Source: Spirosoma fluviale
GTDB taxonomy: Bacteria; Bacteroidota; Bacteroidia; Cytophagales; Spirosomataceae
DNA: 39,478 nucleotides
Direction of reading: 5' to 3'
Assembly (NCBI GenBank): GCA_945883625.1
Contig: CAMCXW010000002.1
Location: 1 to 39,478 of the forward strand
In this document: in pieces, positions 7,001-34,030 of the stretch
Layout: each line of letters starts with the position of its first letter
Position numbering within the stretch: position 1 is the stretch's first letter
Position numbers and translations under genes: made by a program
Notes under the pieces: generated by a model
Told to the model about the DNA's origin: nothing
Database searches by the model: none
What the model saw: only the letters and a program-made list of their open reading frames with translations

Positions 7001-7132
7001 AAAAGACGAATTCAAAAAATCCCTTTTGTAATGCGAAATAAAAAAGTTTCCAATTTCTAAATCTTTATCGGTGCTGCTTTTAGAAAATAATCCAAATGGA
7101 AGTATCAGCAAAATAGCGATTACTATTTTCAT
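4058..7132 (-). CDS. Propeller-sensor SpoIIE-type protein phosphatase
   Basis: A 1024-residue membrane protein. After an N-terminal signal (MKIVIAILLILPFGLF) there are about 650 residues of repeated blades of the two-component-regulator-propeller type, then a Y_Y_Y domain (about 665-745), one transmembrane helix (about 752-772), a short coiled linker, and a cytoplasmic PP2C/SpoIIE phosphatase (about 800-1024). Metal-binding motifs are intact: GGDYYDF with D828, GDATGHG with D846, ASDG with D962, and PDD at 1013-1015. The periplasmic part resembles the sensors of hybrid two-component systems, but the output is a serine phosphatase. It is the first gene of the run that continues with the HATPase and STAS genes, whose phosphoprotein it should act on. 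The ligand is unknown. Confidence 0.93.
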   Translation of the reverse strand: MKIVIAILLILPFGLFSKSSTDKDLEIGNFFISHYKRDFLNSSFGNYVVHQDKDGVIYVGNVRNGLIEFDGQRVRRVLQNGKPMNAFIRDVEADSKNTLYVASASFNFGYLQKNKFGQNEYISLSDKLPKKDEITATLWGIAIHQDTVFFQTENAVYLFKDKKYLRSYKFKDEIHIIFSSPDGVYLRVWGKGLFKFSQKSGFSVIKGSEKLFAQNRIEANYLLANGDHLLVSRNIGLIRMTKKGEFMPVNNPYANKYVIEGKSYINDKVMRNGKIPIITTDKGILFLNQDLSTNAEVGLKSGLLETGFSFVTQDRVGDIWGANSGATKISFDPSLTNFSSLNGIQGGVRDIIRHQGKLYVRTTDDLFQFVPKKSITETSVFKSLDVKELGGALSVFDDQIVSTDNYSINAVLNGKKIKISDTYRSSESIQSKLNPSLLFSSNTAYGLLMHQFNGRVWKEIKIIGGEKYSGREIIEPEPGKILISTRKGIVMFTYDSTGQGTFTPISQDKSFAKTKQLKRLFYLNEGLLAASDSSNKIFIVDAEAKKLKFSGFSLDSMVSTELANYTYNKDAGYAWLICQKGLFKTYFDVKKGFTFQKYPFYKVDLDELSYQILPEGSGDDEVIWMGSQDSKLYRYIPSLALKEPVQKFKALIRSISSNGELIPIVPEKLPFDQNNLVFEVAYPLFGTENKTTFSYWLENQDDTWSAYTRDSKKEYTNLREGSYVFHVRAMDASGHVSDETSVKFKISPPWYRTLFAYFIYIGILVYLFILFGKYQAKKSRGKAEDERRMAELEAAKDLQNRMLPKTLPKIDGLEIASFLQTSSEVGGDYYDFHPQPDGSLVAVCGDATGHGTAAGMLVSITKAGLIGLPLDEPNKMLFDLNRLVKKVDLGILRMSLNIVHFKKNKLKLSSAAMPPCYLYAAKTNKIEEIQISGLPLGGLYGATFDMEERSFSKGDIFVIASDGLPEAPNLNGVQLGYQAVEDCILMNANKSAEEIKDALVVLGSDWLAGQTTPDDITIVVIKHV

Positions 7133-14245: not shown

Positions 14246-15334
14246 CTAATTGCCTACTTTTGAAAAACACGGTAATAAATCTTGTTCAAAATAGGGAGGT
14301 TGGTTTGTCCAAAATATGTAATTGACTTTCAAAAAATCTTTTGCAAAAGCGTGAAGTAACGGTACAATATTATTTCGATTTTTCGTGGCAATGTTGGTAG
14401 ATTCATTTCCTGTTTTGCCCACATAATTTCCGTCCTGTATAGCAATTCCGATTGGTACGCTGTAACGCTCTTCATGCAAAAGCGTGATGAGGTGATTCAA
14501 TTGTCCTTTTCTTGTCACCATCAAATCTGGCCCTCCAATTCCTACGCCAATCTCCTCACCGTATTTGTATATAGATCTCAAGTAGCCTTTGTCATCAAAA
14601 GGGAGCCATTCGCCGGGCATAAAATTTGCGTAAATCATCGTTGTGGAATTCCGAAATGCTTTTTTTAGAGAAAGCATATTTTCTTTTAATCCAATGAGAT
14701 ATTCTTTCGCTGAAAAACTGGCATCTTTTACTCCAACGGCAGTTTCTTGCAAGTTGATTCCTTCAATTTTTCCGTCAAACTCTTGTCCCATTGCTTGAAG
14801 AAGTAGAGCAAATCGTTCTCTCACTTTCTTATTCCAACGTTTTGCCACCCAGCCTTCTGGTTTTCCATTATCACTGTATTGAGCTACGGCCCCTCCGTCA
14901 TATTCATAAGTCAATAAATAGTCGGGTAGTGCTTTATACTTAGAATCGAATGTAACATCTTGTATCTGTACAAATAATTTCTTGTTGAATTTTTTAAGAT
15001 ACTCATAGTCATGATTTAAAATACTAAAATCGTATTGTCCTTTTTGAGGCTCGAAGTTTTTCCAAGAGTACATAATTTGGGCCCCCTCAAACATGAAATG
15101 TGAAAGTAAAGGGTGGTCAATGATTGATTCTCTGTCCCTTGCAAAATAAACAAAATGTCGAATACTATCTTTTTTGATTGGGCAAGTAGCACCTAAATAT
15201 AGTTTATATGCTTCAGCATATTTTTCGCTTGGATTTTGCCATTTCTGGGCGTTGACAATTACCCCAACTTTGATGAAAAGTAAAAGCAAAAAATATTTTT
15301 TGGGGAAGTTATATCTAAAAATTGTTGTACTCAT
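14246..15334 (-). CDS. Secreted putative TIM-barrel glycoside hydrolase, family not recognised
   Basis: A 362-residue exported protein. After a signal (about 1-29, ending IVNAQ) it shows features of a clan-A-like glycosidase barrel: SWKNFEPQKGQYDF at about 90-103, typical of the beta2-alpha2 region, and INLQETAVG with E197 as a candidate catalytic acid. E350 near the C-terminal FWTNQPPYFE is a possible second acid. I cannot name the family, and no close relative comes to mind. The ATG at 15332-15334 is preferred to one at 15370, because the latter lies inside the hairpin that follows SusD. It is the only obvious backbone-cleaving candidate in the SusCD locus, so it may be the endo-enzyme that opens the sulfated polymer. 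Confidence 0.75.
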   Translation of the reverse strand: MSTTIFRYNFPKKYFLLLLFIKVGVIVNAQKWQNPSEKYAEAYKLYLGATCPIKKDSIRHFVYFARDRESIIDHPLLSHFMFEGAQIMYSWKNFEPQKGQYDFSILNHDYEYLKKFNKKLFVQIQDVTFDSKYKALPDYLLTYEYDGGAVAQYSDNGKPEGWVAKRWNKKVRERFALLLQAMGQEFDGKIEGINLQETAVGVKDASFSAKEYLIGLKENMLSLKKAFRNSTTMIYANFMPGEWLPFDDKGYLRSIYKYGEEIGVGIGGPDLMVTRKGQLNHLITLLHEERYSVPIGIAIQDGNYVGKTGNESTNIATKNRNNIVPLLHAFAKDFLKVNYIFWTNQPPYFEQDLLPCFSKVGN

Positions 15335-15365
15335 TATTGGCAACTTGAATTTCTTGATTTTGTGT

Positions 15366-15398
15366 AACATCCCGAAAGCTTTAAGCTTCCGGGATGTT
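15366..15398 (-). terminator. Hairpin between SusD and downstream enzyme genes
   Basis: AACATCCCG (15366-15374) pairs perfectly with CGGGATGTT (15390-15398). An inner 5-bp stem and a TTA loop follow after one mismatch. It starts 43 bp after the SusD stop. No U tract follows on the minus strand, so it is more likely a leaky attenuator or an mRNA-stabilising 3' end for susCD than a full terminator. Confidence 0.55.
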
Positions 15399-15440
15399 CA
15401 AAAGATTTTTCTAAAAAAATACGTTACGGATTTCAAGTAC

Positions 15441-17108
15441 CTATTTCAATTTTGGATTGACGTTAACTTCGGACTGAGGAATAGGCCAGCGGTCGTCAAT
15501 TCCTTTTCTAAAATTCTTAGAAGTAACAAACCATCTAAACTTAGGATCAAGTTTTTTAGAAGTTTTGGCATAGAGCTGAGAATTGGGAAATGGTGCACCC
15601 CAAAAATCTCCTTTCAGCACTTGATCGCCAATGTCCCAACGAAAAATATCCCAAAGACGAATGCCTTCAAAGGCTAATTCTATTCTGCGCTCATTTCTAA
15701 GAATAGGTCGAAGCAAATTGGAGTCTGTTACTCTGATTGGAGGCATCTTTACAGAAGCGCGTCCACGTACAGCATTAATAGTTTGGTCTAATAGTGCTTG
15801 TGATATGGGTTTGCCAGCTTCCAATTCAGCCTCTAAATAGCTCAGCAACACCTCGGCATATCTTATAATAGGCAAATTTCCGCCATAATCAGTCACCAGA
15901 CCACCAGTAAAATTTTCGTCAAAAAACTTACGTAAGCCATAACCAGTTCTAGTAGCTTGTTTGGAGTAAGTAAGTTGATCCAATGATTTAGTAGAGTCAG
16001 GGTGACATACATATGTTTTTTGACCAAATTTTGTGCCGTCCCACAAGAAATTATAGCGGAATCGTGGGTCCCTGTTTTCGCCCATGTTTTTATAATTGAA
16101 TTTGGGATTATCATAAGACAGGGGTGTGCCGTCGTTAAAACCGTAGGCATCAGCTATACTTCCTGTTGGATTAACGATATGCCAACCTGAAGCTACTGCT
16201 GGGAAAGCATGTTGCGTAAGAGCATTGGAGGTTTCTCCGGGTACATATTGCATACTAAATATATTCTCACTGCTATTTTCATTGGCAGGGGTAAAAAGTG
16301 TTTGATAGTCAGGATCTATTTTGTTTGCCCCTAAATCAATGATTTGCTTGTATGCGGCGGCGGCTTCGGTAAACTTCTTTTCTGCGAGATAGATTCTTCC
16401 CAAGAACGCTAGTGCGGCCTGTTTGCTAGCTCTACCTGTTTCGTCAGCTTTTAGTGCACCAAACGAAGGAAGTTTGGACGCAGCAGACGTCAACTCGTCA
16501 ATCACAAATTTTACTACCTCACTTTTAGGTGCTTTGTCCACATTATTGGCTTCAATGGGCGTAAGTTTTTTCTTTACTAAAGGAACAGCACCAAAATATT
16601 GAGATAAATAGAAGTATTGAGTAGCTCTGATAAACATAGCCTCTGCTTTCATGCGGTCAATTTTGGCCTGTTCTATCTTAACCTTATCTATGTTTTCTAA
16701 AAAATCGTTACAAATGGCAATTCTCCTGTAAGAACCTGACCAATAACCAAGTATCACAGCGTTGTCAGGGAGCAAAGTGCCATTTGTAAGCCTATTTTGC
16801 ATCGAATTGTCTCCACGGCGATCGTAAAGATTATCAGTAGCAAACTCTAAAAATATCAAACCTGCATAATTCCACCAATCTGTTGGGTTTACCTGCGTGC
16901 CGTAGGTCATACTGCCTCTATACATGCCCGCTAGCGCAATTTTGGTATTGGGTTCAGAAGTCCAAAAATTATCATTGGCAAAAGCATTGCTAGGAAACTG
17001 TTCCAGTGATTTTTCACAAGAAAATAAGACGGTCATTAGAAGCGTCAATACTATGGCTTTACCATATTTAGACGTTTTTGGGAAAAGATTATGTGTAAAA
17101 AAGTTCAT
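15441..17108 (-). CDS. susD: SusD/RagB family glycan-binding lipoprotein
   Basis: A 555-residue surface lipoprotein that forms the lid on the SusC transporter and binds glycan. It has a signal with a lipobox at VLFSC (lipidated C31), followed by the usual LEQFPSNAFANDNFW start of the mature chain, alpha-helical TPR-like stretches, and the C-terminal hallmark NERRIELAFEGIRLWDIFRW. Its length fits the family. It starts 4 bp after the SusC stop, so the two are co-expressed. Family assignment is firm; the symbol is generic for the family and does not imply starch as substrate. Given the neighbours, a sulfated glycan is the likely ligand. Confidence 0.95.
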   Translation of the reverse strand: MNFFTHNLFPKTSKYGKAIVLTLLMTVLFSCEKSLEQFPSNAFANDNFWTSEPNTKIALAGMYRGSMTYGTQVNPTDWWNYAGLIFLEFATDNLYDRRGDNSMQNRLTNGTLLPDNAVILGYWSGSYRRIAICNDFLENIDKVKIEQAKIDRMKAEAMFIRATQYFYLSQYFGAVPLVKKKLTPIEANNVDKAPKSEVVKFVIDELTSAASKLPSFGALKADETGRASKQAALAFLGRIYLAEKKFTEAAAAYKQIIDLGANKIDPDYQTLFTPANENSSENIFSMQYVPGETSNALTQHAFPAVASGWHIVNPTGSIADAYGFNDGTPLSYDNPKFNYKNMGENRDPRFRYNFLWDGTKFGQKTYVCHPDSTKSLDQLTYSKQATRTGYGLRKFFDENFTGGLVTDYGGNLPIIRYAEVLLSYLEAELEAGKPISQALLDQTINAVRGRASVKMPPIRVTDSNLLRPILRNERRIELAFEGIRLWDIFRWDIGDQVLKGDFWGAPFPNSQLYAKTSKKLDPKFRWFVTSKNFRKGIDDRWPIPQSEVNVNPKLK

Positions 17109-17112
17109 ATCA

Positions 17113-20100
17113 TTAAAATTTTAAATTGATACCAATAGTATAGGTTCTTAAAATAGGATAGTAGTCGCCACCCGTGTTGATTTCTGGGTCCCAACCTTGC
17201 CTAAAGCTGTTAAAAGAGAACATATTTTCTCCCGTAACATAGAGTTTTAGATTATTTAATCTCATCTTTTCAAGTATATTCTTAGGTAAATTGTACCCAA
17301 GTTGAATATTTTTAACCCTCAAGTATGCAGCATTAATTATCCAAAAATCAGAGGTTACGGTATTGGGCGTACCGCTATTTGTTACCTCTTCCAATCTAGG
17401 ATAGTCTGGATACCTCTCTGGTTGGTCTGGCTTAAATCTTCCATCCATTTGCCATTTTTGGATGTTACCCAAGTTGAAAAAAGCATAGCCAGCGTAACCA
17501 GTCAATGTACCTTTAACCCCGGCTACACCTTGCATAAAAACTGAAAGGTCAAAATTACTATATGAAAGTCCTAAATTGGCACCGAAAGTATATTTTGGAA
17601 TTCGGCTTCCAAGATAAGCTCTGTCGTAAATTGGATCTACTTTGCCATCTGGTACACCATTGGGACCACTAATGTCTTTGTACCTAATGTCGCCTGCTTG
17701 TGGCCTTGGTGTTACGGCCGTTTGAACGGGCCACGAACTAATATCACTAGCATTTAAGAAAACACCATCTGAAAGGTACCCATAATACATTTGCATGGGA
17801 AAGCCAATGAACAAATCAGAGCCATTACCCACATAGCCGTTGGGTTGGTTTACATTACCAAGTCCCAAAGTCAGCACCTTGTTATTGATAATTGAAAAAT
17901 TCCCATTAAAAGAATACTTCCACTTCCCTTTTTCACCCCTGTACCCAATATCAAATTCCCAACCCGTGTTTTCAACAGCTCCTGTGTTAGTTTCACTAAT
18001 CCCTACTCCCAATATAGTGGATACACTTGAGGATGGTCTAAAAAGAATATCTCTTGTGTTTCTGTTAAAGTAAGTAACATTTAAGTTTAAGCTACCATTG
18101 AAAAAACTGGACTCAAAACCAAAGTCATTGGTTTCTGTTGATTCCCACTTGATGTTGGGGTCACGATAGAGGGCGTATGCAGCACCTACACTTATAGTGT
18201 TTCCAAAAGGATAATTTCTACCCGAATTTAGTACCTGTTGGTAAGGATAATTCCCAATATTTTGGTTGCCCAATATACCCCACGAAGCCTTCAATTTCAT
18301 ATCTGTAATCCAAGTAAGGGATTTCATGAAAGACTCTTCCGAAATTCTCCAACCCACGGCAGCCGATGGGAAAGTTGCGTATTTATTTCCTGTAGGAAAT
18401 CTTGAGGAACCGTCGCGACGTATGGTAGCCTCAAACAGATAACGATCATTAAAGCTATATTTGGCTCTCGAAAAGAACGATTGAATGGCCCAGTCAGCAT
18501 CAAAACCACCCACTAACTGGTTGGCAAATCCACCTAAATCTAAGACTGTATAGTCGTTACTTGGAAAATCTTGCTTGTAACCATTAAAATATGTCTCGTT
18601 TTGCTCTTCAAATGAATAACCTGCCAACAAACTAAAGTTATGTCTATTGATTTCTTTGGAATACTCTCCCGTGTATTGCATCGTTTTAAAAATCACTTTA
18701 TCACTCGATTGATTCAAATACGCTTGACTCTGAAAAACGTTAGCATTTAATCGCTGGGAAGCTAAATAAGACCTCTGCTCGAAAAGCGAAAAATTGTACC
18801 CCCCAATTGCCGATAGCGTTAAACCATTAATAGGTTTCCAATCCAACTTACTATTGATACCAAATCTTGAGTTGGGATTTCTCAAATAGGAATCAGAGGC
18901 AAGCCAAGAAACAGGTGTACCACCGCTTTCAGGTCCTACGCCGTAATCGCCGTTAGAGGTCCTTCCTGCAAAAATGGAAGGGTATCGTATGGCATTCTGA
19001 ATAAGCTGATCTAAGAATCCACCTCCTTTATTTGCGGTTGCTTGTGGTTCCCTACGTGTTTCTAATGTGCCAAATATCCGTGTATTTAACTCAATTTTAT
19101 TACTTAGCTTATTTTGCATCGTCAATCGCTGGTTGTAACGATTGAAACTGTTTTTTGCGACAATTCCTTCTTGGTTTAAAAACCCACCTGACAAGTAAAA
19201 ACGGTTTTTATCGTTACCGCCATTTAACGTAACGGTATGAGCAGTTTGCACGCCCGATCTTGAAAAAACTTCATCTAAAAAACGGGTATTGGGAAAATTG
19301 TCGGGATCACTTTGATTGCGATATTTTTCAATCGAAGCAGGCGAAAAACTCTGACTTCCTGAGGCAATATTAAACATGGATGCGTAATCGGCAGAATTAA
19401 CAAAATCAGGAAAAGCTGTTGCATTGTTGAAACCCACATAGCCATCATAACTTACAGATAGCTTGTCGGACGTACCATTTTTCGTGGTTATCAAAATAAC
19501 ACCATTGGCAGATCTCGCGCCAAAAATAGCCGCCGAAGAAGCATCTTTCAGTACAGATATCGTTTTAATATCGTTGGGGTTAATGTCGTTCATTGTTCCT
19601 GCTATTCCATCTATTAATATAAGCGCATCGGGAGTAGCACCAAAAGACCCCACACCTCTTACGCGAATTTGACCACCACTACTACCTGGACGACCTGTAT
19701 TTTGAATCACTGTGACACCTGGCATTTGACCTGTTATAGCCTGTGAAGCTTGAGTAACAGGGCGATTATCAATATCTTTTGAAGAAATTTGTGATACAGA
19801 ACCGATTACATTGACCTTTTTTTGTGTACCATAACCGACCACTACAACCTCATCAAGGGCTTTAGCATCTACTTTAAGACTTACATTGATTTGGCTTTGA
19901 CTACCTACGATCACTACTTGCGACTCGTAGCCTACAAAAGAAATCAAAAGAGAAACATTACTATCCGGTACCGTTAAACTAAAATTACCATTTGAGTCTG
20001 TCTGTGTCCCTTTCGTTGTTCCTTTAATACTAATATTAACACCAGGTATTCCCTGACCTTTTTCATCTTTAATTTTTCCAGTAAGCGGCTTATCTACTAA

Positions 20101-20502
20101 CTGATTTATATTTATGGATGGTATATTTAATTCTACTACCTTTTCACTTCGAAGAATTATTCGATTTTCTTTTACTAAATATTTTATAGCAAACGGCATT
20201 AGTAAATCATTCAAAACTTGATCAAGTCTTTTTTGGGTCACATTGATATTGACTAATTGTGATGTATTAATGTTACTAGAACTATATACAAATTTGACTT
20301 TGACTTGTTTTTCAATCGTCGATAGCACTTTTTTTATTTCTGCATTTTCCATTTGCAATGAAACCGTCTTGCCTAAATCAAATTGGCTATAAGCGGTATG
20401 TGCATAAGAAAAAGTGCAAAAAACTAAACAGAGGACTAATTGTTGTAGTGTGATTTTCATAATTACCAAAAACAATTTTGGAAACAGATGTGATTTGTTC
20501 AT
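17113..20502 (-). CDS. susC: SusC/RagA TonB-dependent transporter with STN signalling domain
   Basis: A 1129-residue outer-membrane transporter for glycan fragments. Order of domains: signal sequence (about 1-40), STN secretin/TonB short domain (about 45-117), carboxypeptidase-D-like regulatory domain (about 139-209), a DEVVVVGYGTQKK segment (218-230), plug (about 235-350), then a 22-strand-type beta barrel ending in a terminal phenylalanine (IGINLKF). The STN domain is the extra part found in transporters that signal through FecR to an ECF sigma factor, which matches the two genes just upstream. A second possible start is M15. Substrate is inferred from context to be a sulfated polysaccharide. 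Confidence 0.96.
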   Translation of the reverse strand: MNKSHLFPKLFLVIMKITLQQLVLCLVFCTFSYAHTAYSQFDLGKTVSLQMENAEIKKVLSTIEKQVKVKFVYSSSNINTSQLVNINVTQKRLDQVLNDLLMPFAIKYLVKENRIILRSEKVVELNIPSININQLVDKPLTGKIKDEKGQGIPGVNISIKGTTKGTQTDSNGNFSLTVPDSNVSLLISFVGYESQVVIVGSQSQINVSLKVDAKALDEVVVVGYGTQKKVNVIGSVSQISSKDIDNRPVTQASQAITGQMPGVTVIQNTGRPGSSGGQIRVRGVGSFGATPDALILIDGIAGTMNDINPNDIKTISVLKDASSAAIFGARSANGVILITTKNGTSDKLSVSYDGYVGFNNATAFPDFVNSADYASMFNIASGSQSFSPASIEKYRNQSDPDNFPNTRFLDEVFSRSGVQTAHTVTLNGGNDKNRFYLSGGFLNQEGIVAKNSFNRYNQRLTMQNKLSNKIELNTRIFGTLETRREPQATANKGGGFLDQLIQNAIRYPSIFAGRTSNGDYGVGPESGGTPVSWLASDSYLRNPNSRFGINSKLDWKPINGLTLSAIGGYNFSLFEQRSYLASQRLNANVFQSQAYLNQSSDKVIFKTMQYTGEYSKEINRHNFSLLAGYSFEEQNETYFNGYKQDFPSNDYTVLDLGGFANQLVGGFDADWAIQSFFSRAKYSFNDRYLFEATIRRDGSSRFPTGNKYATFPSAAVGWRISEESFMKSLTWITDMKLKASWGILGNQNIGNYPYQQVLNSGRNYPFGNTISVGAAYALYRDPNIKWESTETNDFGFESSFFNGSLNLNVTYFNRNTRDILFRPSSSVSTILGVGISETNTGAVENTGWEFDIGYRGEKGKWKYSFNGNFSIINNKVLTLGLGNVNQPNGYVGNGSDLFIGFPMQMYYGYLSDGVFLNASDISSWPVQTAVTPRPQAGDIRYKDISGPNGVPDGKVDPIYDRAYLGSRIPKYTFGANLGLSYSNFDLSVFMQGVAGVKGTLTGYAGYAFFNLGNIQKWQMDGRFKPDQPERYPDYPRLEEVTNSGTPNTVTSDFWIINAAYLRVKNIQLGYNLPKNILEKMRLNNLKLYVTGENMFSFNSFRQGWDPEINTGGDYYPILRTYTIGINLKF

Positions 20503-20509
20503 ACTTTTA
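20477..20509 (+). promoter_or_regulatory. Bacteroidota-type promoter on the strand opposite susC
   Basis: TTTG at 20477-20480, then 21 bases, then TACTTTTA at 20502-20509. This matches the Bacteroidota consensus TTTG...TAnnTTTG except for the last base of the -7 box. Transcription would begin near 20513, run away from susC towards fecR, and end at the hairpin at 20569-20594. It overlaps the susC start codon on the other strand. Confidence 0.4.
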
Positions 20510-20512
20510 CGT

Positions 20513-20600
20513 AGTTAAGGTTATACAATCATTAACTAAGTTTTACCAGTTATTGGTAGAAACTTTCGGCCGGAGATGCGTCAACATCTCCGGCTTTTTT
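20513..20600 (+). ncRNA. Predicted cis-antisense small RNA in the FecR-SusC gap
   Basis: A promoter-like sequence (20477-20509) and a textbook terminator (20569-20600) on the plus strand define an RNA of about 88 nt complementary to the susC leader. It could fold into three stems: TAGTTAA/TTAACTA (20512-20518 with 20532-20538), TTTTACCA with TGGTAGAA (20541-20548 with 20554-20561, one G.U pair), and the 10-bp terminator stem. Antisense RNAs at this position (for example DonS) are known to repress susCD-type genes in Bacteroides. Existence here is inferred from signals only. Confidence 0.42.
20569..20600 (+). terminator. Canonical intrinsic terminator facing away from susC
   Basis: A perfect 10-bp GC-rich stem (GCCGGAGATG at 20569-20578, CATCTCCGGC at 20585-20594) with a 6-base loop, followed by six T on the plus strand. 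On the minus strand the stem is followed by CGAAAGTTTC, which lacks a U tract. It therefore works best for plus-strand transcription, where no protein gene exists, though it could also attenuate read-through from fecR into susC. Confidence 0.7.
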
Positions 20601-20633
20601 ATTCTGCTTTAAGAACTATTCATTTTTATATTT

Positions 20634-21656
20634 TTATTTACACGAATTTCCTATGACAAATATTTTTGACCCACGTAATTCATATCTCGCATTAATAGAC
20701 GAGAAAGCAACGTCTAACTGCTCGTAAAAGTCCAAACCACGTAAATCACCCGTAAATAGGCAATTTTCAATTTCGCTATTCACAAATATGATATCAACTC
20801 CATAAAATAATTTGAGGCGGTCTCTCAAGGTACCAAATCGAATTTCATCAAATAAGAAATCCGCAACTTGAATATTAGGGACTAATATGCGCGGTTTCAC
20901 TGCAATTGTCTCTTCAATTGTTTGATTTTCAATATTATAGATGGCCTTTAAATTAGATGTCAAAACAACACCTTTTAATTTTTTTGAACTTCTATTTTTT
21001 GTGTATGCATAAACAGAAACTTTTCCACTTGTTACCACTGCCTCAATTAATTTACTCTGACTATCTATCCCAACACTAAAACTAGTACCCAAAACTTCTG
21101 TCACAAAATTCCCAATCCTCACTAAAAAAGGTTTTTTTTCGTTTCTAGTTACATTAAAAAATCCCTTACCTTTTAAAAACACCGTCCGGTTAACCTTTCC
21201 AAAATCTTCTGAAACAACAATACTTGAATTCTTTTCCAATAGAACTGTACTACCATCTGGAAGCTTAAAAGTCTGATTAGACTTCGTTTGATTTTTGGTT
21301 TCTAATCCTCTATTTTCAATGGATGCATTCGGTTGAAAAAAATCTGGCGAATATAAATAGACGCTGAAAGTGGCTACGACTATCAATAACGCAGCAATTG
21401 TTAATTGAACAAATTTACTTTGGAAGGTAAAATTTCTTATTTGAGGCTTATTAAATAGTTCATCATTAAGTTTATTCCACAACCTATCCTCCTCTAATTG
21501 CAATTCCTTTTCATCTTTTAAAATGGCTAAATCAGCATGCTTTTCTATACTTTCATTAACAATACCTTCCAAAAAAAGGATCTCCTCCGGGGTGCATTGA
21601 CCGTTCTCGAATTTTTGCAATAAAATATCGAATTCCTTCTTGTTCATCAGATTCAT
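20634..21656 (-). CDS. FecR family anti-sigma factor
   Basis: A 340-residue single-pass inner-membrane protein that holds the ECF sigma factor inactive until signalled by SusC. The cytoplasmic part is about 1-80, one transmembrane helix lies at about 83-103 (QLTIAALLIVVATFSVYLYS), then comes a periplasmic FecR domain (LPDGSTVLLEKNSSI through VLGTSFSV) and a C-terminal DUF4974/STN-like domain (about 265-335). Two start codons (M1 and M4) are possible; the longer begins 1 bp after the sigma stop. The gene is followed by a hairpin and then susC. Family and role are firm, from the gene trio sigma-FecR-SusC(STN). Confidence 0.95.
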   Translation of the reverse strand: MNLMNKKEFDILLQKFENGQCTPEEILFLEGIVNESIEKHADLAILKDEKELQLEEDRLWNKLNDELFNKPQIRNFTFQSKFVQLTIAALLIVVATFSVYLYSPDFFQPNASIENRGLETKNQTKSNQTFKLPDGSTVLLEKNSSIVVSEDFGKVNRTVFLKGKGFFNVTRNEKKPFLVRIGNFVTEVLGTSFSVGIDSQSKLIEAVVTSGKVSVYAYTKNRSSKKLKGVVLTSNLKAIYNIENQTIEETIAVKPRILVPNIQVADFLFDEIRFGTLRDRLKLFYGVDIIFVNSEIENCLFTGDLRGLDFYEQLDVAFSSINARYELRGSKIFVIGNSCK

Positions 21657-21657
21657 A

Positions 21658-22215
21658 TTAATTAACTGAATAAAAATCTTTAAAATTTTCTCTTAAAAAT
21701 TTCAAAGATTTAGTTACGTGATATTCAACTGCTTTTTCAGATAACTCCAGTTGAGCAGCAATCTTTTTGACAGGAATTTCTTCGATTTTGCTCATTCTAA
21801 ATATCAAAGCAGTCTTTTCAGGCATAGTTAACATAAGCTCATTAAGTCTTTGCTCAAACTCTTTTGAAAATAGCAACTCCTCAGTAGGACATGACTCATT
21901 TATTTGATTCAACAATTGAAACTCTCTAAACTTCCTAATATTAATTTGATTCCGGAGAGATTTATTAATTAAATTCCTACTCGCAATAAATAAGTATACT
22001 TTAAGATTTTCAATTTTACTTTCTTCACGCTTATTCCATAAACTAAGCATCAAATCATGGAGTATTTCCTCTGAATCTTCTTTTGATCCAAGATTCTGGT
22101 AAACAAACCCGTAAATAAACTTCCAATACCTTTTGTAAACTACCTCAAATGCACCGCTATTACCCGTTTTTAGGAGTGTTACTAATTCAAAATCAGATAA
22201 CTCATTTAAATTCAT
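21658..22215 (-). CDS. ECF-type RNA polymerase sigma-70 factor
   Basis: A 185-residue sigma factor of the extracytoplasmic-function group, Bacteroidota FecI-like. It has region 2 (about 20-85, with FVYQNLGSKEDSEEILHDLMLSLW) and region 4 (about 120-180, with the helix-turn-helix EIPVKKIAAQLELSEKAVEYHVTKSL). Lengths and motifs are normal. It is the first gene of the locus, 1 bp from its FecR partner, and should direct transcription of the downstream susCD and enzyme genes when the polysaccharide is sensed at the outer membrane. Its own target promoter is not known; I see no obvious repeated motif upstream of both this gene and susC. Confidence 0.95.
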   Translation of the reverse strand: MNLNELSDFELVTLLKTGNSGAFEVVYKRYWKFIYGFVYQNLGSKEDSEEILHDLMLSLWNKREESKIENLKVYLFIASRNLINKSLRNQINIRKFREFQLLNQINESCPTEELLFSKEFEQRLNELMLTMPEKTALIFRMSKIEEIPVKKIAAQLELSEKAVEYHVTKSLKFLRENFKDFYSVN

Positions 22216-22350
22216 TAGGTCAACTAGCTAGCATATTTGGTGTAAGGTTCCACAAGTTTCAATAATCCCTAAGATTAATTATATTTTATTTAAGAATAGT
22301 AATGAAACTAACTTCATCAAGGTAATTGGGTACGCTATATATTTTATACA

Positions 22351-22379
22351 TAAAATTAATATGACCCTACTTAATGCAA
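22351..22379 (-). promoter_or_regulatory. Candidate promoter of the ECF sigma gene
   Basis: Reading on the minus strand, TTG (22379-22377), 18 bases, then TAATTTTA (22358-22351), one base off TAnnTTTG. It lies about 135 bp before the sigma start codon. A perfect -7 box alone (TATTTTTG, 22430-22423) lies further upstream without a clear -33 partner. Weak support. Confidence 0.28.
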
Positions 22380-22440
22380 TCATTTGTACTTTAAATAAGT
22401 CATCGTACTGATTTCTTGCCAACAAAAATAAGTTTGAAAA

Positions 22441-23904
22441 TTAGCTCCCTGCCGACTTTTGATTCGCACTCCTTCCCCAATCTGGAAGATCAATTTGGAG
22501 GTTGTCATGCTTTTCAAGCATTTCCTTTTTCAATAGGTTACGCATCCGTTTTATTCTCCCTTGCTGCGTTTTATCTTGTGCCAAATTATACTTTTCCCAC
22601 GGATCCGTTTTGAGATTGAATAGTTGGCTTGTCAACACGCCATTCACATTATATAAAATTAATTTGTACCCATCCTTCGTTTTCAAACTCCTACTCCAAT
22701 GCCCATAAACATTGTAAATTTGATCCCTTACAGCCTTTTCTGGATGATGCAAAATCGGTAATAGACTTTTTGCCTCCACCGTTTTAGGTGCTTTAATTTC
22801 TAAATAATCATAAATAGTAGGAGCAATATCACTTAAATAAACAAAGGAGTTATTTCGGACGTTTTTAGGTATTCCCGGACCTGAAAATATCATGGGAACC
22901 CGGATGCTATGCTCATATAAATTTTGCTTTCCCAAAAGACCATGTTGGCCCATCGCCAACCCATTATCTCCCGCATAAACAATCAACGTATTTTTCAACA
23001 AGCCTTCTTTTTCCAATGTTGACATAATTCGCCCAATCTGCTCATCAAGCTCCGAAATCATTCCATAATACGCAGCAATATCTTCTTTAACCGCTATTTC
23101 TGTTCTGGGATGAGGCAATAAATTTTCATCCCGCACATGTAGATCCCCATTATTAAAGGGATGTTCCGGCAAGAAATTGGGCGGTAATGAGATTTTCGAA
23201 GGATCATACGCTTTAGAAAATCTTGCCGTAGGTGTACGCGGATCATGCGGTGAAGTAAAAGCTACATAACAGAAAAATGGCTTTTCTTTGGCTTCCTGAC
23301 TACCTAAAAAATCAATAGCTGTTTGTGCATATAAATGCGAACTGTAAGTATCACTTAGGAAACTTTTCTCAGGAGGATAACTCCCTGTTGGATCAAAGTG
23401 GTTAACCCGCGGATGTTCCTGACCTCCCTCTTTAGGAAAATGCATGCCCCCAAAAAAGATATTATCAGCCTTTGAAAACATCCGTGCATAGGATTTTTTA
23501 TCGCTATGCCACTTCCCCGTGTGAAAGGTAGTATATCCTTTTTGGCGTAAAACCTCAGGCAAACTAATCAAACTATCGTGAATCACATTTCCATCACCAG
23601 GCAATCGATTTACATACCGGCCCGTCAACAACATCACCCGCGAAGGAATACAAACCGCTCCCTGGTGACCACCCATCACATGGGCTTGTTGGAAAGTCAA
23701 CCCACTTTTCACCAAATGATCTAAATTAGGCGTTTTGATTTCTTTATTCCCCAATGCCTGAATAGTTCGATAAGATTGATCGTCGCTGTAGATAATAATA
23801 ATGTTTTTTGCGGGGAAATTAGTTGATGCAGATTGAGCCCAAACAGAAGGAATGCCCATAATCAATACACAGCAAATGAATAGATTTTGAATACTATTTT
23901 TCAT
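22441..23904 (-). CDS. Secreted S1-family sulfatase
   Basis: A 487-residue exported sulfatase with a signal peptide ending near VWAQ (residue 24), metal aspartates D41-D42 in YSDDQSYRT, and the active-site CIPSR at C85-R89 inside HVMGGHQGAVCIPSRVMLLTGR. Other marks are GKWHSDK, TSPHDPR and GDNGLAMGQHGL. The DDQ..T start and the GDNGLAMGQHG block are like those of iduronate-2-sulfatase and N-acetylglucosamine-6-sulfatase relatives, so a glycosaminoglycan-type sulfate is plausible but unproven. The gene is transcribed divergently from the permease gene (128 bp between starts) and lies upstream of the sigma gene with no terminator seen between them. Confidence 0.92.
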   Translation of the reverse strand: MKNSIQNLFICCVLIMGIPSVWAQSASTNFPAKNIIIIYSDDQSYRTIQALGNKEIKTPNLDHLVKSGLTFQQAHVMGGHQGAVCIPSRVMLLTGRYVNRLPGDGNVIHDSLISLPEVLRQKGYTTFHTGKWHSDKKSYARMFSKADNIFFGGMHFPKEGGQEHPRVNHFDPTGSYPPEKSFLSDTYSSHLYAQTAIDFLGSQEAKEKPFFCYVAFTSPHDPRTPTARFSKAYDPSKISLPPNFLPEHPFNNGDLHVRDENLLPHPRTEIAVKEDIAAYYGMISELDEQIGRIMSTLEKEGLLKNTLIVYAGDNGLAMGQHGLLGKQNLYEHSIRVPMIFSGPGIPKNVRNNSFVYLSDIAPTIYDYLEIKAPKTVEAKSLLPILHHPEKAVRDQIYNVYGHWSRSLKTKDGYKLILYNVNGVLTSQLFNLKTDPWEKYNLAQDKTQQGRIKRMRNLLKKEMLEKHDNLQIDLPDWGRSANQKSAGS

Positions 23905-24032
23905 ATGTTCGGTCTACAATGTGATATGCGAATGTGCGTTAAAAATATAAATAATTCAATGAAAAGTATAAATACATTGCTTCTTTAAATAAATCAAATT
24001 AAATTAAACATTAAATAAACCTATCTAAATTC

Positions 24033-25346
24033 ATGAATAAGCCGATAGCGATAAGCTCATTAAGCAAACGAGATACTCAAGTTTCAATTTTTCTTATTGG
24101 ACTTATGTTTTTCATTTTTGGGTTTGTATCCTGGGCCAATGCCATTTTAATTCCCTACTTTAAAATTGCCTGCGAATTAAGCAATTTCAGAGCCTATTTA
24201 GTCACATTTGCATTTTACATTTCCTATTTTGTCATGTCAGTTCCTGCCTCTTACCTATTAAAATCCCTTGGATTTAAAAAGGGCATGATGCTGGGTTTTT
24301 GGATCATGTCAATAGGGGCTTTTATTTTTATTCCTGCGGCGATGGGCCGCACCTACTCCATTTTTTTAGTTGGTTTATTTACCTTAGGGACAGGTTTAGC
24401 CATTCTTCAAACGGCCGCTAACCCGTACATTACCTTGCTTGGACCCAAAGAAAATGCTTTGCAACGAATCAGCATCATGGGGATTTGCAACAAAGGAGCC
24501 GGAATTTTAGCCCCATTGGTATTTGCGGCAGTCATATTAAAAGCTACCGACAGTGATTTGTTCAAAAATTTGGCATTTATGTCAGGTGAAAATAGAAATA
24601 TTGCGTTAAACGAACTGATTTCAAGGGTCATCGAACCCTACTTTTACGTGGGTATCATACTCTTTTTACTAGGCCTAGCCATTCGTTTTTCCCCTTTACC
24701 TGAGATCGATACGGACCAAGAAAGTCTGGAATCAACGCAAAGCAACGCATCCAAAAAAAGTATTTTGCAATTCCCACATTTAATTTTAGGCGCTTTTGCT
24801 ATTTTTCTACACGTAGGAACGCATATCATCGCGATTGATACCATTATCGGATATGCAGGATCCATGCAGATTCAACTCCTGGAGGCCAAGGTATTTCCAG
24901 CGTTTACCCTTGGAGCAACGATTTTAGGCTATATCATTGGCATCATCTGTATTCCAAAGTTTATCAGCCAAGTGAATGCATTGCGTATTTGCACGGTCTT
25001 AGGTTTACTTTTTTCAATTGGTATTTTAGTCAGTCACGGGATGGTCGAAATTGCTGGATTAAAAGCGGACATCAGTATCTGGTTTGTCGTGGCACTGGGC
25101 TTGGCCAATTCGTTAATTTGGGCAGGAATATGGCCATTGGCACTTGATGGCTTAGGGAAATTTACCAAAATTGGAGCCTCCATTCTCATTATGGGATTAT
25201 GCGGAAACGCCATTATGCCGCTTGTTTATGGCTATTTCGCGGATCTCTATGATTTAAAATCTGCCTATGCCGTTTTATTACCTTGCTATATTTACCTTAT
25301 CTTTTATGCCGCAAAAGGACATCAAATTAAAAATTGGACATTTTGA
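24033..25346 (+). CDS. nagP: Sugar MFS permease, FucP/NagP-like
   Basis: A 437-residue inner-membrane protein with about 12 hydrophobic segments. It matches the fucose/glucose-galactose/N-acetylglucosamine permease branch of the major facilitator family, most clearly in LQTAANPYITLLGPKENALQRISIMGICNKGAG. FucP-type proteins are sugar:proton symporters. Because nagA, nagB and a nagX-like gene lie only 2 kb away on the other strand, N-acetylglucosamine is the likely cargo, hence the tentative symbol; fucose or another sugar remains possible. A GlcNAc kinase, needed after such import, is not in this window. The stop lies 8 bp before the preferred start of the next gene, so they form an operon. 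Confidence 0.85.
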   Translation: MNKPIAISSLSKRDTQVSIFLIGLMFFIFGFVSWANAILIPYFKIACELSNFRAYLVTFAFYISYFVMSVPASYLLKSLGFKKGMMLGFWIMSIGAFIFIPAAMGRTYSIFLVGLFTLGTGLAILQTAANPYITLLGPKENALQRISIMGICNKGAGILAPLVFAAVILKATDSDLFKNLAFMSGENRNIALNELISRVIEPYFYVGIILFLLGLAIRFSPLPEIDTDQESLESTQSNASKKSILQFPHLILGAFAIFLHVGTHIIAIDTIIGYAGSMQIQLLEAKVFPAFTLGATILGYIIGIICIPKFISQVNALRICTVLGLLFSIGILVSHGMVEIAGLKADISIWFVVALGLANSLIWAGIWPLALDGLGKFTKIGASILIMGLCGNAIMPLVYGYFADLYDLKSAYAVLLPCYIYLIFYAAKGHQIKNWTF

Positions 25347-25354
25347 AAACGAAT

Positions 25355-26347
25355 ATGAATCAAAAAATAACCCGCAGAAATTTTATGGGACCACTCGTGA
25401 TGGCAGGGCTTAGTTTACCATTTGCCAAATCCCGAGTTGATTCAATGTCAATTGCAGGAAAACGAATTGGAATCATTGGTCTAGATACCTCCCATAGTGT
25501 CGCATTTACCAAATCATTAAACGCTGATTCACCCAATCCCGTATACGATGGATTTAAAGTTGTCGCAGCTTACCCCCATGGAAGTAAAGACATTGTATCA
25601 AGCACAGAAAGAATTCCTGCTTATACCGAACAAGTACAAAAATTAGGTGTTGAAATTGTAGGATCCATTCAAGATTTACTCAACAAAGTAGATTTTGTCA
25701 TGCTTGAAACGAATGACGGAAGGTTACATTTAGAACAAGCCATTGAAATCTTCAAAGCAGGAAAAACGACCTTCATAGATAAACCTGTTGCCGCTTCGTT
25801 GAAAGATGCCAAATCCATTTTCAAAGAAGCAAAGAAATACAAAGTCCCTGTATTTTCTTCCTCCTCACTTCGCTACGCAACGGGTATGCAAGAAATTAAA
25901 CAGGGTAAAATTGGGGCAATTTCAGGAGCAGACACCTACAGCCCAATGAAATTCGAAAAGACCCATCCTGATCTTTTTTGGTATGGAATACACGGCGTTG
26001 AAATGTTATTTACGGTTATGGGCCCTGGCTGCGTATCTGTTCAACGAACTATTTCAGAGGAACAAGAAGTTTGCACAGGTATTTGGGACGATGGCCGTAT
26101 TGGCACATTTAGGGGGATAAAATCTGGAAAACAAGATTATGGCGGAATTGCCTATGGAAAAAGCGGCATCCTACATCTAGGTCCTTATAACGGCTATGAT
26201 CCTTTATTAATTAAAATAATCGAATTCTTTAAATCAGGAATTCCACCCGTAGATGAACGGGAAACCTTGGCCATTTTGGCCTTTATGGAGGCCGCTGATG
26301 TAAGTAAAAATACAAAGGGTGCACGTGTTACTTTAGCGCAAATCTGA
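25355..26347 (+). CDS. Tat-exported Gfo/Idh/MocA family oxidoreductase
   Basis: A 330-residue NAD(P)-dependent sugar oxidoreductase-type protein. The N-terminus carries a twin-arginine signal (TRRNFMG, R7-R8, then a hydrophobic stretch ending PFAKS). The Rossmann core begins GKRIGIIGLDTSHS, a variant of the usual GxGxxG, and the family's catalytic-lysine motif appears as DKP at 142-144. I start it at the ATG at 25355, which puts the Tat motif at the N-terminus and leaves 8 bp after the permease stop; an upstream start at 25334 would overlap it. The next gene encodes a DUF1080 protein, a pairing known from 3-keto-glycoside pathways, so it may oxidise a sugar at C3. Substrate unknown. Confidence 0.87.
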   Translation: MNQKITRRNFMGPLVMAGLSLPFAKSRVDSMSIAGKRIGIIGLDTSHSVAFTKSLNADSPNPVYDGFKVVAAYPHGSKDIVSSTERIPAYTEQVQKLGVEIVGSIQDLLNKVDFVMLETNDGRLHLEQAIEIFKAGKTTFIDKPVAASLKDAKSIFKEAKKYKVPVFSSSSLRYATGMQEIKQGKIGAISGADTYSPMKFEKTHPDLFWYGIHGVEMLFTVMGPGCVSVQRTISEEQEVCTGIWDDGRIGTFRGIKSGKQDYGGIAYGKSGILHLGPYNGYDPLLIKIIEFFKSGIPPVDERETLAILAFMEAADVSKNTKGARVTLAQI

Positions 26348-32574: not shown

Positions 32575-34029
32575 CTAACTTAAAATCGCCTTAACTACAT
32601 TTCCATGCACATCAGTTAATCGGAATCGCCTTCCTTGATATTTGAAAGCCAATTCTTCATGATCTATCCCCATAAGATGTAGTAAAGTGGCTTGGAAATC
32701 GTGTACATGAACAGGGTCTTTCAAAATATTATAGGAGAAATCATCTGTTTGGCCATATGTAATTCCGGGCTTAACACCCGCACCAGCCATCCACATGGAA
32801 AAGCACCTCGGATGATGATCCCTGCCATAGGCATTCGCAGATAATTTGCCCTGCGAATAAACCGTTCGTCCAAATTCCCCTCCCCAGATGACCAAGGTAT
32901 CTTCGAGCATCCCTCTTCGTTTTAAATCCAAAATCAACGCGGCTGTCGCTTGATCCGTTTGCTGACATTGCTTAGCCATATTTCGCGGCAAATCACCATG
33001 ATGGTCCCAACCTTGGTGATACAATTGCACAAAACGAACGTCTTTTTCCAATAACTTTCTAGCCAATAAACAATTGGCAGCGAAAGATCCTTTATCCCTA
33101 CTCGTAGGTCCGTACATGGCAAAAGACGCATCACTTTCACCCTGCGTATCCATCACCTCAGGAACAGAAGTTTGCATCCGAAAAGCCATTTCGTATTGGG
33201 AAATGCGTGCGTCAACTTCCGGATCACCCCATGCATTATTTTGAATTGAGTTCAATTTTGTCAAATAATCCAACATCTCTTTCCGGTCTTCCCCATCATA
33301 ACCCTCCGGATTATTTAAAAACAAAACAGGATCTTTACCCGATCGAAACTGAACACCCTGATGCTCCGAAGGCAAAAAACCATTGCCCCAAAGACGCGCA
33401 TATAAGGGTTGATCTTTAGCCGCATCACTCGAAACCAACACAATAAATGCAGGTAAATTCTGATTTTCAGATCCCAAACCATAGCTGAGCCATGATCCAA
33501 TAGAAGGCCGACCGGCTAATTGATGACCCGTTTGTAAAAAAGTAATCGCCGGATCATGATTTATTTGCTCTGTAAACATGGAATTAATAATGCACAAATC
33601 ATCCACAACTTGGGCCGTATAAGGCAATAAATCGCTCACCCACGTGCCCGATTTTCCATGCTGGCTAAATTCAAATTTAGAGGGTACAACTGGCAAAATA
33701 GCTTGATTCGCACTCATGCCCGTCAGCCGCTGACCTCGCCGGACAGAATCCGGCAAATCTTTTCCATAAAAAGATTTTAAAGTAGGCTTGTAATCAAAGG
33801 TCTCAAATTGTGATGGACCACCAGCCATAAACAAATAAACAACGCGCTTGGCTTTGGGAGCAATCGCTGGCAACATGCGCATTATTTCTTTTTCCAAACT
33901 CGCAGCGTTCGCTTGCTGGGAAAAAATACTATTCAACGCCAAAGCACCAAAACCCATGCCGGTCTTTTGAAGAAAATCTCGACGATCCAACTTTCGATGC
34001 AATTCCGACAAGTCATTAAATGGTGCCAT
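32575..34029 (-). CDS. DUF1501 family Tat-exported protein
   Basis: A 484-residue protein of the DUF1501 family, which has the alkaline phosphatase/sulfatase-like fold. The N-terminal twin-arginine signal is LDRRDFLQKTGMGFGALAL (R16-R17). Family segments include YLFMAGGPSQFETFDYKP, QGWDHHGDLP, VIWGGEFGRT and GRDHHPRCFSMWMAGAG, rich in likely metal ligands. No CxPxR is present, so it is not a formylglycine sulfatase. The activity of the family is not settled. It starts 1 bp after the PSD1 stop, the standard Planctomycetes-type gene pair, and is probably folded in the cytoplasm before export to act with its partner. Confidence 0.92.
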   Translation of the reverse strand: MAPFNDLSELHRKLDRRDFLQKTGMGFGALALNSIFSQQANAASLEKEIMRMLPAIAPKAKRVVYLFMAGGPSQFETFDYKPTLKSFYGKDLPDSVRRGQRLTGMSANQAILPVVPSKFEFSQHGKSGTWVSDLLPYTAQVVDDLCIINSMFTEQINHDPAITFLQTGHQLAGRPSIGSWLSYGLGSENQNLPAFIVLVSSDAAKDQPLYARLWGNGFLPSEHQGVQFRSGKDPVLFLNNPEGYDGEDRKEMLDYLTKLNSIQNNAWGDPEVDARISQYEMAFRMQTSVPEVMDTQGESDASFAMYGPTSRDKGSFAANCLLARKLLEKDVRFVQLYHQGWDHHGDLPRNMAKQCQQTDQATAALILDLKRRGMLEDTLVIWGGEFGRTVYSQGKLSANAYGRDHHPRCFSMWMAGAGVKPGITYGQTDDFSYNILKDPVHVHDFQATLLHLMGIDHEELAFKYQGRRFRLTDVHGNVVKAILS

Positions 34030-34030
34030 G

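What the first reader, a model, noticed from the sequence alone, without database searches (positions are those of the whole stretch)
20477..20600. Likely cis-antisense small RNA between the anti-sigma gene and susC
Seen: on the strand opposite the locus there is a TTTG-N21-TACTTTTA promoter-like pair (20477-20509) and, downstream, a perfect 10-bp terminator stem with six T (20569-20600). Between them lie two more possible stems. No protein gene exists on that strand. Known: antisense RNAs such as DonS in Bacteroides lie at this site and repress susCD-type genes. Inference: an RNA of about 88 nt pairs with the susC leader and lowers expression of this sulfated-glycan locus. This would extend that control outside the gut Bacteroides.
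Basis: partly seen in the sequence, partly recalled or inferred. Interest (0 to 1): 0.75.

Follow-up and report, generated by a model that had tools for sequence, protein, structure and literature searches.

The report
Antisense RNA opposite a sugar-uptake gene
A freshwater bacterium probably makes a short RNA opposite the leader of its sulfated-sugar uptake gene, and many relatives keep the same signals, so a brake known from gut bacteria may reach much further.

Summary
Comparison shows more than chance. I recognised the hairpin in 61 of 84 fecR-susC gaps. Its imperfect pairs are A.C on the susC strand 41 times and G.T 3 times, hence G.U on the antisense strand: the antisense RNA is what folds. 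A T-run of 3-8 stands within 10 nt on the antisense side in 61 of 61. The 5' hairpin shows the same bias (32:2); the middle one does not (14:19). A TAnnTTTR box covers the susC start in 49 of 61 such gaps, against 5 of 252 other ORFs. A covariance model without Aquirufa sequences gave 23 distinct hits at E<=0.001, all antisense in fecR-susC gaps. Best reading: a DonS-like cis-antisense RNA of about 85-90 nt that dampens susCD. No transcript or repression was measured. The kind is known in Bacteroides; I found no report from Cytophagales or other Bacteroidia in the papers searched.

The parts
20477..20480 (+). -33-like TTTG, 21 bases before the -7 box; lies inside the susC coding region
   Evidence: Sequence. 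Weak: antisense TTG in about that place in 38 of 58 gaps, confounded by susC coding.
20502..20509 (+). -7-like box TACTTTTA (TAnnTTTR), overlapping the susC start codon
   Evidence: TAnnTTTR over the susC start in 49 of 61 hairpin-bearing gaps against 5 of 252 (named loci), 0 of 22 (window) and 0 of 37 (Aquirufa loci) other ORFs.
20514..20600 (+). predicted antisense RNA, about 85-90 nt (5' end +/- 3 nt)
   Evidence: Between -7 box and T-run; 85 nt by the rule; fold z -6.8; found by an independent covariance model at 34.6 bits, E 1.6e-4 in 421 kb and best hit of its own genome, E 8.8e-4 (150 of 1026 candidates scored).
20512..20538 (+). hairpin H3 (5' end of the RNA)
   Evidence: H3-like hairpins in relatives (17 unique stems): 32 A.C against 2 G.T on the sense strand.
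20539..20564 (+). hairpin H2 (middle)
   Evidence: two pairs change C-G to U-A on both sides in Aquirufa orthologs, a number shuffles reach in 242 of 500; no strand preference across the wider set (14 against 19).
20568..20600 (+). hairpin H1 and T-run: intrinsic terminator of the antisense RNA
   Evidence: 41 A.C against 3 G.T on the sense strand over 46 unique stems, antisense T-run of 3-8 within 10 nt in 61 of 61.
17113..20502 (-). susC-type TonB-dependent transporter with STN domain (target)
   Evidence: Pfam STN (27.6 bits, just under its cut-off of 28.4), CarbopepD_reg_2, Plug
15441..17108 (-). susD-type lipoprotein
   Evidence: Pfam SusD_RagB, SusD-like_3
20634..21656 (-). FecR-type anti-sigma factor
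   Evidence: Pfam FecR, FecR_C
21658..22215 (-). ECF sigma factor
   Evidence: Pfam Sigma70_r2, r4_2
20609..20623 (-). mini-ORF MNSS-stop in the susC-strand leader, just beyond the antisense terminator
   Evidence: Present in 7 of 7 orthologous gaps, differences mostly at third codon positions and in the stop codon

Best explanation
A cis-antisense small RNA of about 85-90 nt is transcribed on the + strand from a Bacteroidota primary-sigma promoter whose -7 box lies over the susC start codon, runs back through the susC leader and ends at an intrinsic terminator just short of fecR. Its three hairpins pair with the complementary hairpins of the susC leader, beginning at loops; the duplex covers the leader from about -12 to -98 but not the start codon, so it would act by blocking ribosome loading on the leader and/or by double-strand RNA cleavage, with promoter collision as a possible addition. 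It sets a ceiling on leaky susCD expression, which ECF-sigma induction overrides. Shown: sequence, structure, strand of the structure, terminator, promoter box, conservation. Inferred: transcription, pairing, repression and its route.
For: A.C against G.T on the sense strand: H1 41:3 (p 1.6e-9 under equal chance; 33:3 as distinct events), H3 32:2. Antisense T-run 3-8 within 10 nt in 61 of 61 against sense T-run 0-4. Consensus fold better on the antisense strand in 8 of 9 groups (53 of the 61 gaps grouped). Aquirufa orthologs: 98.3% of pair cells kept, reached by 19 of 500 shuffles. -7 box tied to the hairpin. Model R1, built without Aquirufa, finds the window; all 20 hits in 148 order genomes and the 3 new hits in 395 class genomes are antisense in fecR-susC gaps, 19 of the 23 ending within 6 nt of a susC ATG. 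Separate class sample: A.C 38 against G.T 10, antisense T-run >=4 in 21 of 33 hairpins, sense T-run >=4 in 2 of 33. Precedent: DonS represses its PUL in B. fragilis (PMC7366714, PMC11697453, passages).
Against: No transcript data. H2 shows no strand preference (14:19); group B folds equally well on both strands; in one ortholog, L042, model R1 scores the sense strand higher (37.4 against 31.1 bits). 12 of 61 gaps lack the box, including all 7 of group F2. The -33 element is weak. Both-side pair changes in the Aquirufa alignment are no more than shuffles give (242 of 500). The RNA does not cover the start codon, so translational repression is not obvious. The sense start site is unknown; if the ECF promoter lay downstream of the hairpins, the mRNA would not contain the target. 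In B. theta some such RNAs correlate positively with their PUL (PMC10994844). One Aquirufa paralog gap (L045, same contig as L085, A. beregesia) has no such hairpin and keeps the box.
Confidence: 0.74

Rival explanations
1. A terminator only: the hairpin stops antisense read-through arising anywhere in susC so that it does not run into the fecR-sigma genes; no discrete regulatory RNA is made.
For: H1 plus T-run is the most regular part; 12 of 61 gaps with H1 lack the -7 box.
Against: The 5' hairpin next to the box shows the same antisense bias (32:2), and the box is tied to hairpin-bearing gaps (49 of 61 against 5 of 252 other ORFs). A bare insulator needs neither.
Confidence: 0.13
2. A structure of the susC-strand mRNA: an intercistronic hairpin that sets the stability or processing of the fecR and susC parts of one transcript, or a leader attenuator.
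For: The sense strand also folds (z -4.7); H2 has no strand preference; L042 fits the model better on the sense strand.
Against: H1 and H3 imperfect pairs are mostly G.U on the antisense strand and A.C mismatches on the sense strand (41:3 and 32:2); no T-run of 5 or more follows the stem on the sense strand (0-4 in 61 of 61).
Confidence: 0.07
3. A DNA-level palindrome or a chance set of motifs in an AT-rich gap.
For: Terminator-like and sigma-70-like sites are no more numerous than in shuffles.
Against: A DNA palindrome has no reason for strand-biased imperfect pairs; conserved place and orientation in 23 of 23 model hits.
Confidence: 0.03

Closest known systems
DonS and the PUL-associated cis-antisense RNAs of Bacteroides (Cao et al. 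2016, not held; described in PMC7366714, PMC11697453, PMC10994844, passages read)
   Same: Short RNA encoded opposite and divergent to a susC homolog; described family length 78-128 nt, predicted here 85 nt; primary-sigma -7 box and intrinsic terminator; in an ECF sigma/anti-sigma locus (recalled as the DonS setting; PMC11697453 links such pairs with host-glycan PULs).
   Different: Host is a freshwater Cytophagales genus; locus is rich in sulfatases; repression is not shown; DonS letters were not available, so no sequence comparison was made.
IstR-1/tisB and CopA/CopT (classical leader-binding antisense RNAs; recalled)
   Same: Would bind a leader upstream of the start codon; H1 loops are enriched for the YUNR U-turn motif (motif recalled) on one strand or the other (23 of 44 unique loops, shuffled 11.9 +/- 2.8).
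   Different: Plasmid or toxin systems; no homology; here the link is by analogy only.
FopS (Rfam RF04319)
   Same: A Bacteroidota small RNA family tied to PUL control (PMC11697453).
   Different: A family of paralogous, mostly intergenic RNAs; the window scores 18.9 bits against a gathering score of 56.

Membership tests
DonS-like PUL-associated cis-antisense RNA | Encoded antisense and divergent to a susC homolog | tested here: met
   same place and strand in 23 of 23 model hits, the window included
DonS-like PUL-associated cis-antisense RNA | Length 78-128 nt (PMC7366714) | tested here: met
   Predicted from box and T-run only: window 85; relatives 66-135, median 105, n = 49
DonS-like PUL-associated cis-antisense RNA | Primary-sigma promoter TAnnTTTG at -7 | tested here: met
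   Window TACTTTTA, 7 of 8; TAnnTTTR in 49 of 61, exact TAnnTTTG in 4 of those 49; exact form in 10 of 21 antisense-terminator gaps of the class sample against 4 of 45 others
DonS-like PUL-associated cis-antisense RNA | Intrinsic terminator | tested here: met
DonS-like PUL-associated cis-antisense RNA | Transcript detected | not testable with these tools
   No RNA data held
DonS-like PUL-associated cis-antisense RNA | Lowers expression of its susC/PUL | not testable with these tools
   Needs a mutant
DonS-like PUL-associated cis-antisense RNA | Common descent with Bacteroides DonS | tested here: inconclusive
   Genomes that carry the Bacteroidales-1 RNA show the same antisense-terminator layout in several gaps, e.g. 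L226, L232, L238, the last with the same ATG-TTGACG-CAT stem-loop core; no DonS sequence compared
Rfam families | Match at gathering score | tested here: not met
   0 matches in the window; best sub-threshold match 22.7 bits against 58.7

The most novel reading that the evidence does not exclude
The RNA is one case of an ancient antisense brake present in fecR-susC loci throughout Bacteroidia, from soil and freshwater Cytophagales to Bacteroidales, and it works together with a leader mini-ORF on the susC strand: the antisense RNA ends just where the mini-ORF begins, so ribosome entry at the mini-ORF and antisense pairing could compete for the leader, as in leader-peptide-coupled antisense systems.
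Probability: 0.22. Interest if true: 0.75.

Novelty: new member of a known kind. Interest (0 to 1): 0.52.

Why it matters
PUL-associated antisense RNAs are described for Bacteroides (32 in B. theta, PMC10994844, passage), and how DonS represses is stated to be unknown (PMC11697453, passage). The comparison gives a structure-level definition (three hairpins, -7 box over the susC start, antisense terminator) and a covariance model that finds such RNAs without RNA-seq, in cultured environmental genera such as Runella, Dyadobacter, Emticicia and Aquirufa. The conserved features (which loops, which stems, leader mini-ORF) say what to mutate to learn the mechanism. Six paper searches (open-licence library, listings of at most 20) listed no report of this RNA class outside Bacteroides.

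Tried and rejected
Generic sigma-70 and terminator counts: not informative. BLASTN of the element in its own genome: itself and 8 chance-level matches of 14-22 bases, so it is not a multicopy repeat. Rfam: nothing. Idea that the -7 box is only the usual A-rich start-codon context: tested against other ORFs and rejected (0 of 22, 5 of 252, 0 of 37; starts there were taken as first ATG, a rougher rule than for susC). Among the 23 gaps without hairpin 1, 10 have the box; all 10 are Aquirufa paralog gaps, L045 and L052-L060, and L052-L060 carry another hairpin. Idea that H2 is antisense-specific: not supported. A motif count used a wrong pattern; redone. Class-wide use of R1 is insensitive: 9 candidates per genome were scored (25), so 6 of 395 and 12 of 148 genomes are floors. 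R1 E-values are rough.

Rows dropped or chosen by hand: of 40 regions fetched, L068 and L077 were not processed and L062, L063, L074, L078 were not carried past. Of 80 named loci, 55 were processed; most of the other 25 are the same contigs as the G regions, and L111 and L137 were left out as well. L085 was left out as a copy of L045; L102, L106, L107, L151, L152 for lack of a clear next susC start. Start offsets of several loci were set by hand; L104 and L108 were one base off and corrected; L039 is broken past the hairpin. The split of 84 gaps into 61 with and 23 without hairpin 1 was made by eye; some gaps are identical (L099, L100), and pair counts use unique stems only. In the class sample 80 regions, chosen by hand for spread from a longer list, were fetched, 78 processed, 75 had a susC-like next ORF by hmmsearch; 66 of these had a usable start and were classed (33 hairpin, 23 none, 10 gap under 40 or over 400 nt). 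susC starts in that sample are rough.

Full report
SETTING. The window is G000:C2:1-39478 of a 2.3 Mb draft genome. Contigs of its same-genus genomes match, by length and coordinates, records named Aquirufa rosea, A. ecclesiirivi and A. beregesia; NCBI places the genus in Cytophagales. On the - strand run a sulfatase, an ECF sigma factor, a FecR anti-sigma factor, susC with an STN domain, susD, a gene of unknown function, and then sulfatases and a PhoD-like protein. The gap between fecR and susC is 131 nt.

OBSERVATION. The + strand RNA from the -7 box to the T-run forms three hairpins, MFE -33.4 kcal/mol, z -6.8. The reverse strand scores z -4.7, so folding alone does not give the strand. Motif scans are no better than shuffles in number.

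CONSERVATION. fecR-susC gaps were collected from congeners and order members and from named genomes: 84 gaps entered the comparison (what was left out is told under Tried and rejected). Hairpin 1 was recognised in 61 of them, by record title in Aquirufa, Runella, Dyadobacter, Persicitalea, Telluribacter, Emticicia, Flectobacillus, Arcicella, Arundinibacter, Fibrisoma and, outside Cytophagales, Niabella and a Chitinophagales MAG among others. All 7 orthologous Aquirufa gaps (the window and 6 with FecR 58-71% identical) have it.

STRAND. A wobble pair is strand-specific: G.U on one strand is A.C on the other. Hairpins were found with a rule that treats the two alike. In 46 unique stems the inner imperfect pairs were A.C on the susC strand 41 times and G.T 3 times (p 1.6e-9 under equal chance); counted once per group, position and pair, 33 and 3. 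The 5' hairpin H3 gave 32 and 2 over 17 unique stems. The middle hairpin H2 gave 14 and 19: no preference. The T-run is on the antisense side in 61 of 61 (3-8 long, within 10 nt of the stem), while the sense side has runs of 0-4. RNAalifold energies favour the antisense strand in 8 of 9 groups, which hold 53 of the 61 gaps; group B is equal. In the six intact Aquirufa orthologs 98.3% of pair cells are kept (19 of 500 shuffles as high), but both-side changes (2 pairs) are no more than shuffles give (242 of 500). Sequences are related, so p-values are nominal; the consistency across groups is what counts.

PROMOTER. A TAnnTTTR box lies over the susC start in 49 of 61 hairpin-bearing gaps (after two one-base corrections; 47 of 61 before). 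Other ORFs have that context in 5 of 252, 0 of 22 and 0 of 37 cases. Among the 23 gaps without hairpin 1 it is in 10, all Aquirufa paralogs L045 and L052-L060. The box is missing in 12 of the 61, including all seven of the Runella zeae/Dyadobacter group F2 and the broken L039. The 5' hairpin starts just after the box, where a transcript would begin. Predicted length: window 85 nt; 66-135 nt, median 105, over 49.

MODEL SEARCH. A covariance model, R1, was built from 14 Persicitalea, Telluribacter, Dyadobacter, Emticicia and related sequences, none from Aquirufa. Over 79 loci it hit the window at 34.6 bits, E 1.6e-4, on the + strand; the window's mirror strand scores 22.3 bits. Mirror hits in other loci score lower than the antisense hit except in the ortholog L042, where the sense strand wins (37.4 against 31.1 bits). 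In the window's own genome the best hit is 20491-20605 +, E 8.8e-4; weaker ones are C38:16790-16892 (E 0.046, a second fecR-susC gap, L071), C38:5302-5392 (E 0.018, no fecR or susC ORF found beside it) and the window's mirror strand (E 0.45). In 148 order genomes 12 had hits, 20 in all at E <= 0.001; all 20, the window included, lie antisense beside a fecR and a susC ORF found with separate protein profiles. In 395 class genomes 6 had hits, 8 in all, 3 of them new and in the same setting. Placed on the gene starts, 22 of the 23 begin after the fecR stop and one (L178) overlaps it by 5 bases; 19 of the 23 end within 6 nt of a susC ATG, the others within 22 nt. Both genome searches are floors because few candidates per genome were scored.

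CLASS SAMPLE. FecR_C hits in 158 class genomes gave 80 further regions; 75 of 78 processed had a susC-like ORF next. Of 66 classed, 33 had a strong hairpin; 21 of the 33 had an antisense T-run of 4 or more, 2 of the 33 a sense one; A.C 38, G.T 10 (p 6e-5); the TAnnTTTR box was in 13 of 21 antisense-terminator gaps and 8 of 45 others. Genomes G286, G213, G253 and G347 carry the Bacteroidales-1 RNA, so Bacteroidales gaps are included and show the same layout in part (for example L226, L232, L238 of G286). The phenomenon therefore reaches across Bacteroidia, with many gaps lacking it.

MECHANISM. The simplest reading is a cis-antisense RNA made by the primary sigma factor and ended by H1. H1 loops are enriched in the YUNR U-turn motif on one strand or the other (23 of 44 unique loops, class sample included; shuffled 11.9 +/- 2.8, 0 of 2000 as high); U-turn loops speed loop-loop contact in classical antisense systems (recalled). 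The duplex would cover the leader but stop about 10 nt short of the susC start, so action on ribosome loading, on mRNA decay or by promoter collision are all open. Transcription, pairing and repression are inferred.

A FURTHER LEADER FEATURE. Between the fecR stop and H1 on the susC strand a mini-ORF (ATG, up to five codons, stop) is present in 41 of 63 gaps, those with at least 20 nt there out of 82 (shuffled 19.6 +/- 3.4); between H1 and susC it is not enriched (15 of 61 against 13.7; 4 of 21 against 4.2). In the 7 Aquirufa orthologs it reads ATG-AAY-AGN-TCY-stop, varying mostly at third positions and in the stop codon. The seven bases GCCTATG start such an ORF in 10 of 55 gaps of the class sample (0.5 expected) and occur in 3 of 78 of the other set (0.75 expected), with none on the other strand in either. 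The mini-ORF is also above expectation in gaps without the antisense terminator (19 of 34 against 10.5 +/- 2.5), so it is a separate feature.

KNOWN WORK. Passages read: PMC7366714 (DonS is one of a family of 78-128 nt cis-antisense RNAs divergent to susC; ten DonS-like in B. theta; TAnnTTTG at -7), PMC10994844 (32 PUL-associated antisense RNAs; both negative and positive correlations), PMC11697453 (DonS represses its PUL by an unknown mechanism), PMC9723704 (Flavobacterium psychrophilum antisense RNAs in general). Cao et al. 2016, the primary DonS paper, is not held. Paper searches. None listed a report of this RNA class outside Bacteroides; the library is limited to open licences.

VERDICT. 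Observation confirmed; antisense RNA strongly supported by comparison; repression plausible but untested; a new member of a known kind in new lineages.

Noticed in passing
window 20609-20623 (-) and 63 fecR-to-hairpin regions: A mini-ORF of one to six codons sits between fecR and the antisense terminator on the susC strand (41 of 63 regions, shuffled 19.6 +/- 3.4); the bases GCCTATG begin it in 10 of 55 gaps of a class-wide sample (0.5 expected) and occur in 3 of 78 of the other set. Possible leader peptide or start-stop element.
   Followed up: partly
window 20576-20587; L046-L051, L086, L093, L096, L097, L189, L206, L238: The terminator loop core ATGCGNCAACAT recurs in either orientation in different lineages (ATGTTGNCGCAT in others), as if the same 12-mer is kept but free to flip.
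   Followed up: partly
G000:C38:16790-16892 (L071 gap): A second fecR-susC gap in the same genome with antisense terminator and an exact TAnnTTTG box over the susC start.
   Followed up: partly
L039 (G004:C197), past the hairpin: The orthologous gap breaks after GTTAATGATCGT and runs into unrelated sequence near the contig end; insertion or assembly break.
   Followed up: no
window 20963-20934 (-): A 12-of-12 TTGACA-18-TATAAT match inside fecR, the best such site of 15000-26000; by a passage of PMC7366714 the classical boxes are absent from Bacteroidetes promoters, so probably chance.
   Followed up: no
window 32575-38283 (-): A planctomycete-like gene set in a Bacteroidota genome: PSCyt1/PSCyt2/PSD1 protein (1070 aa), DUF1501 protein and DUF2231/LRR protein.
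   Followed up: no
window 4058-7132 (-): 1024-aa Y_Y_Y plus SpoIIE phosphatase protein near the sulfatases, a possible signalling protein of the locus.
   Followed up: no
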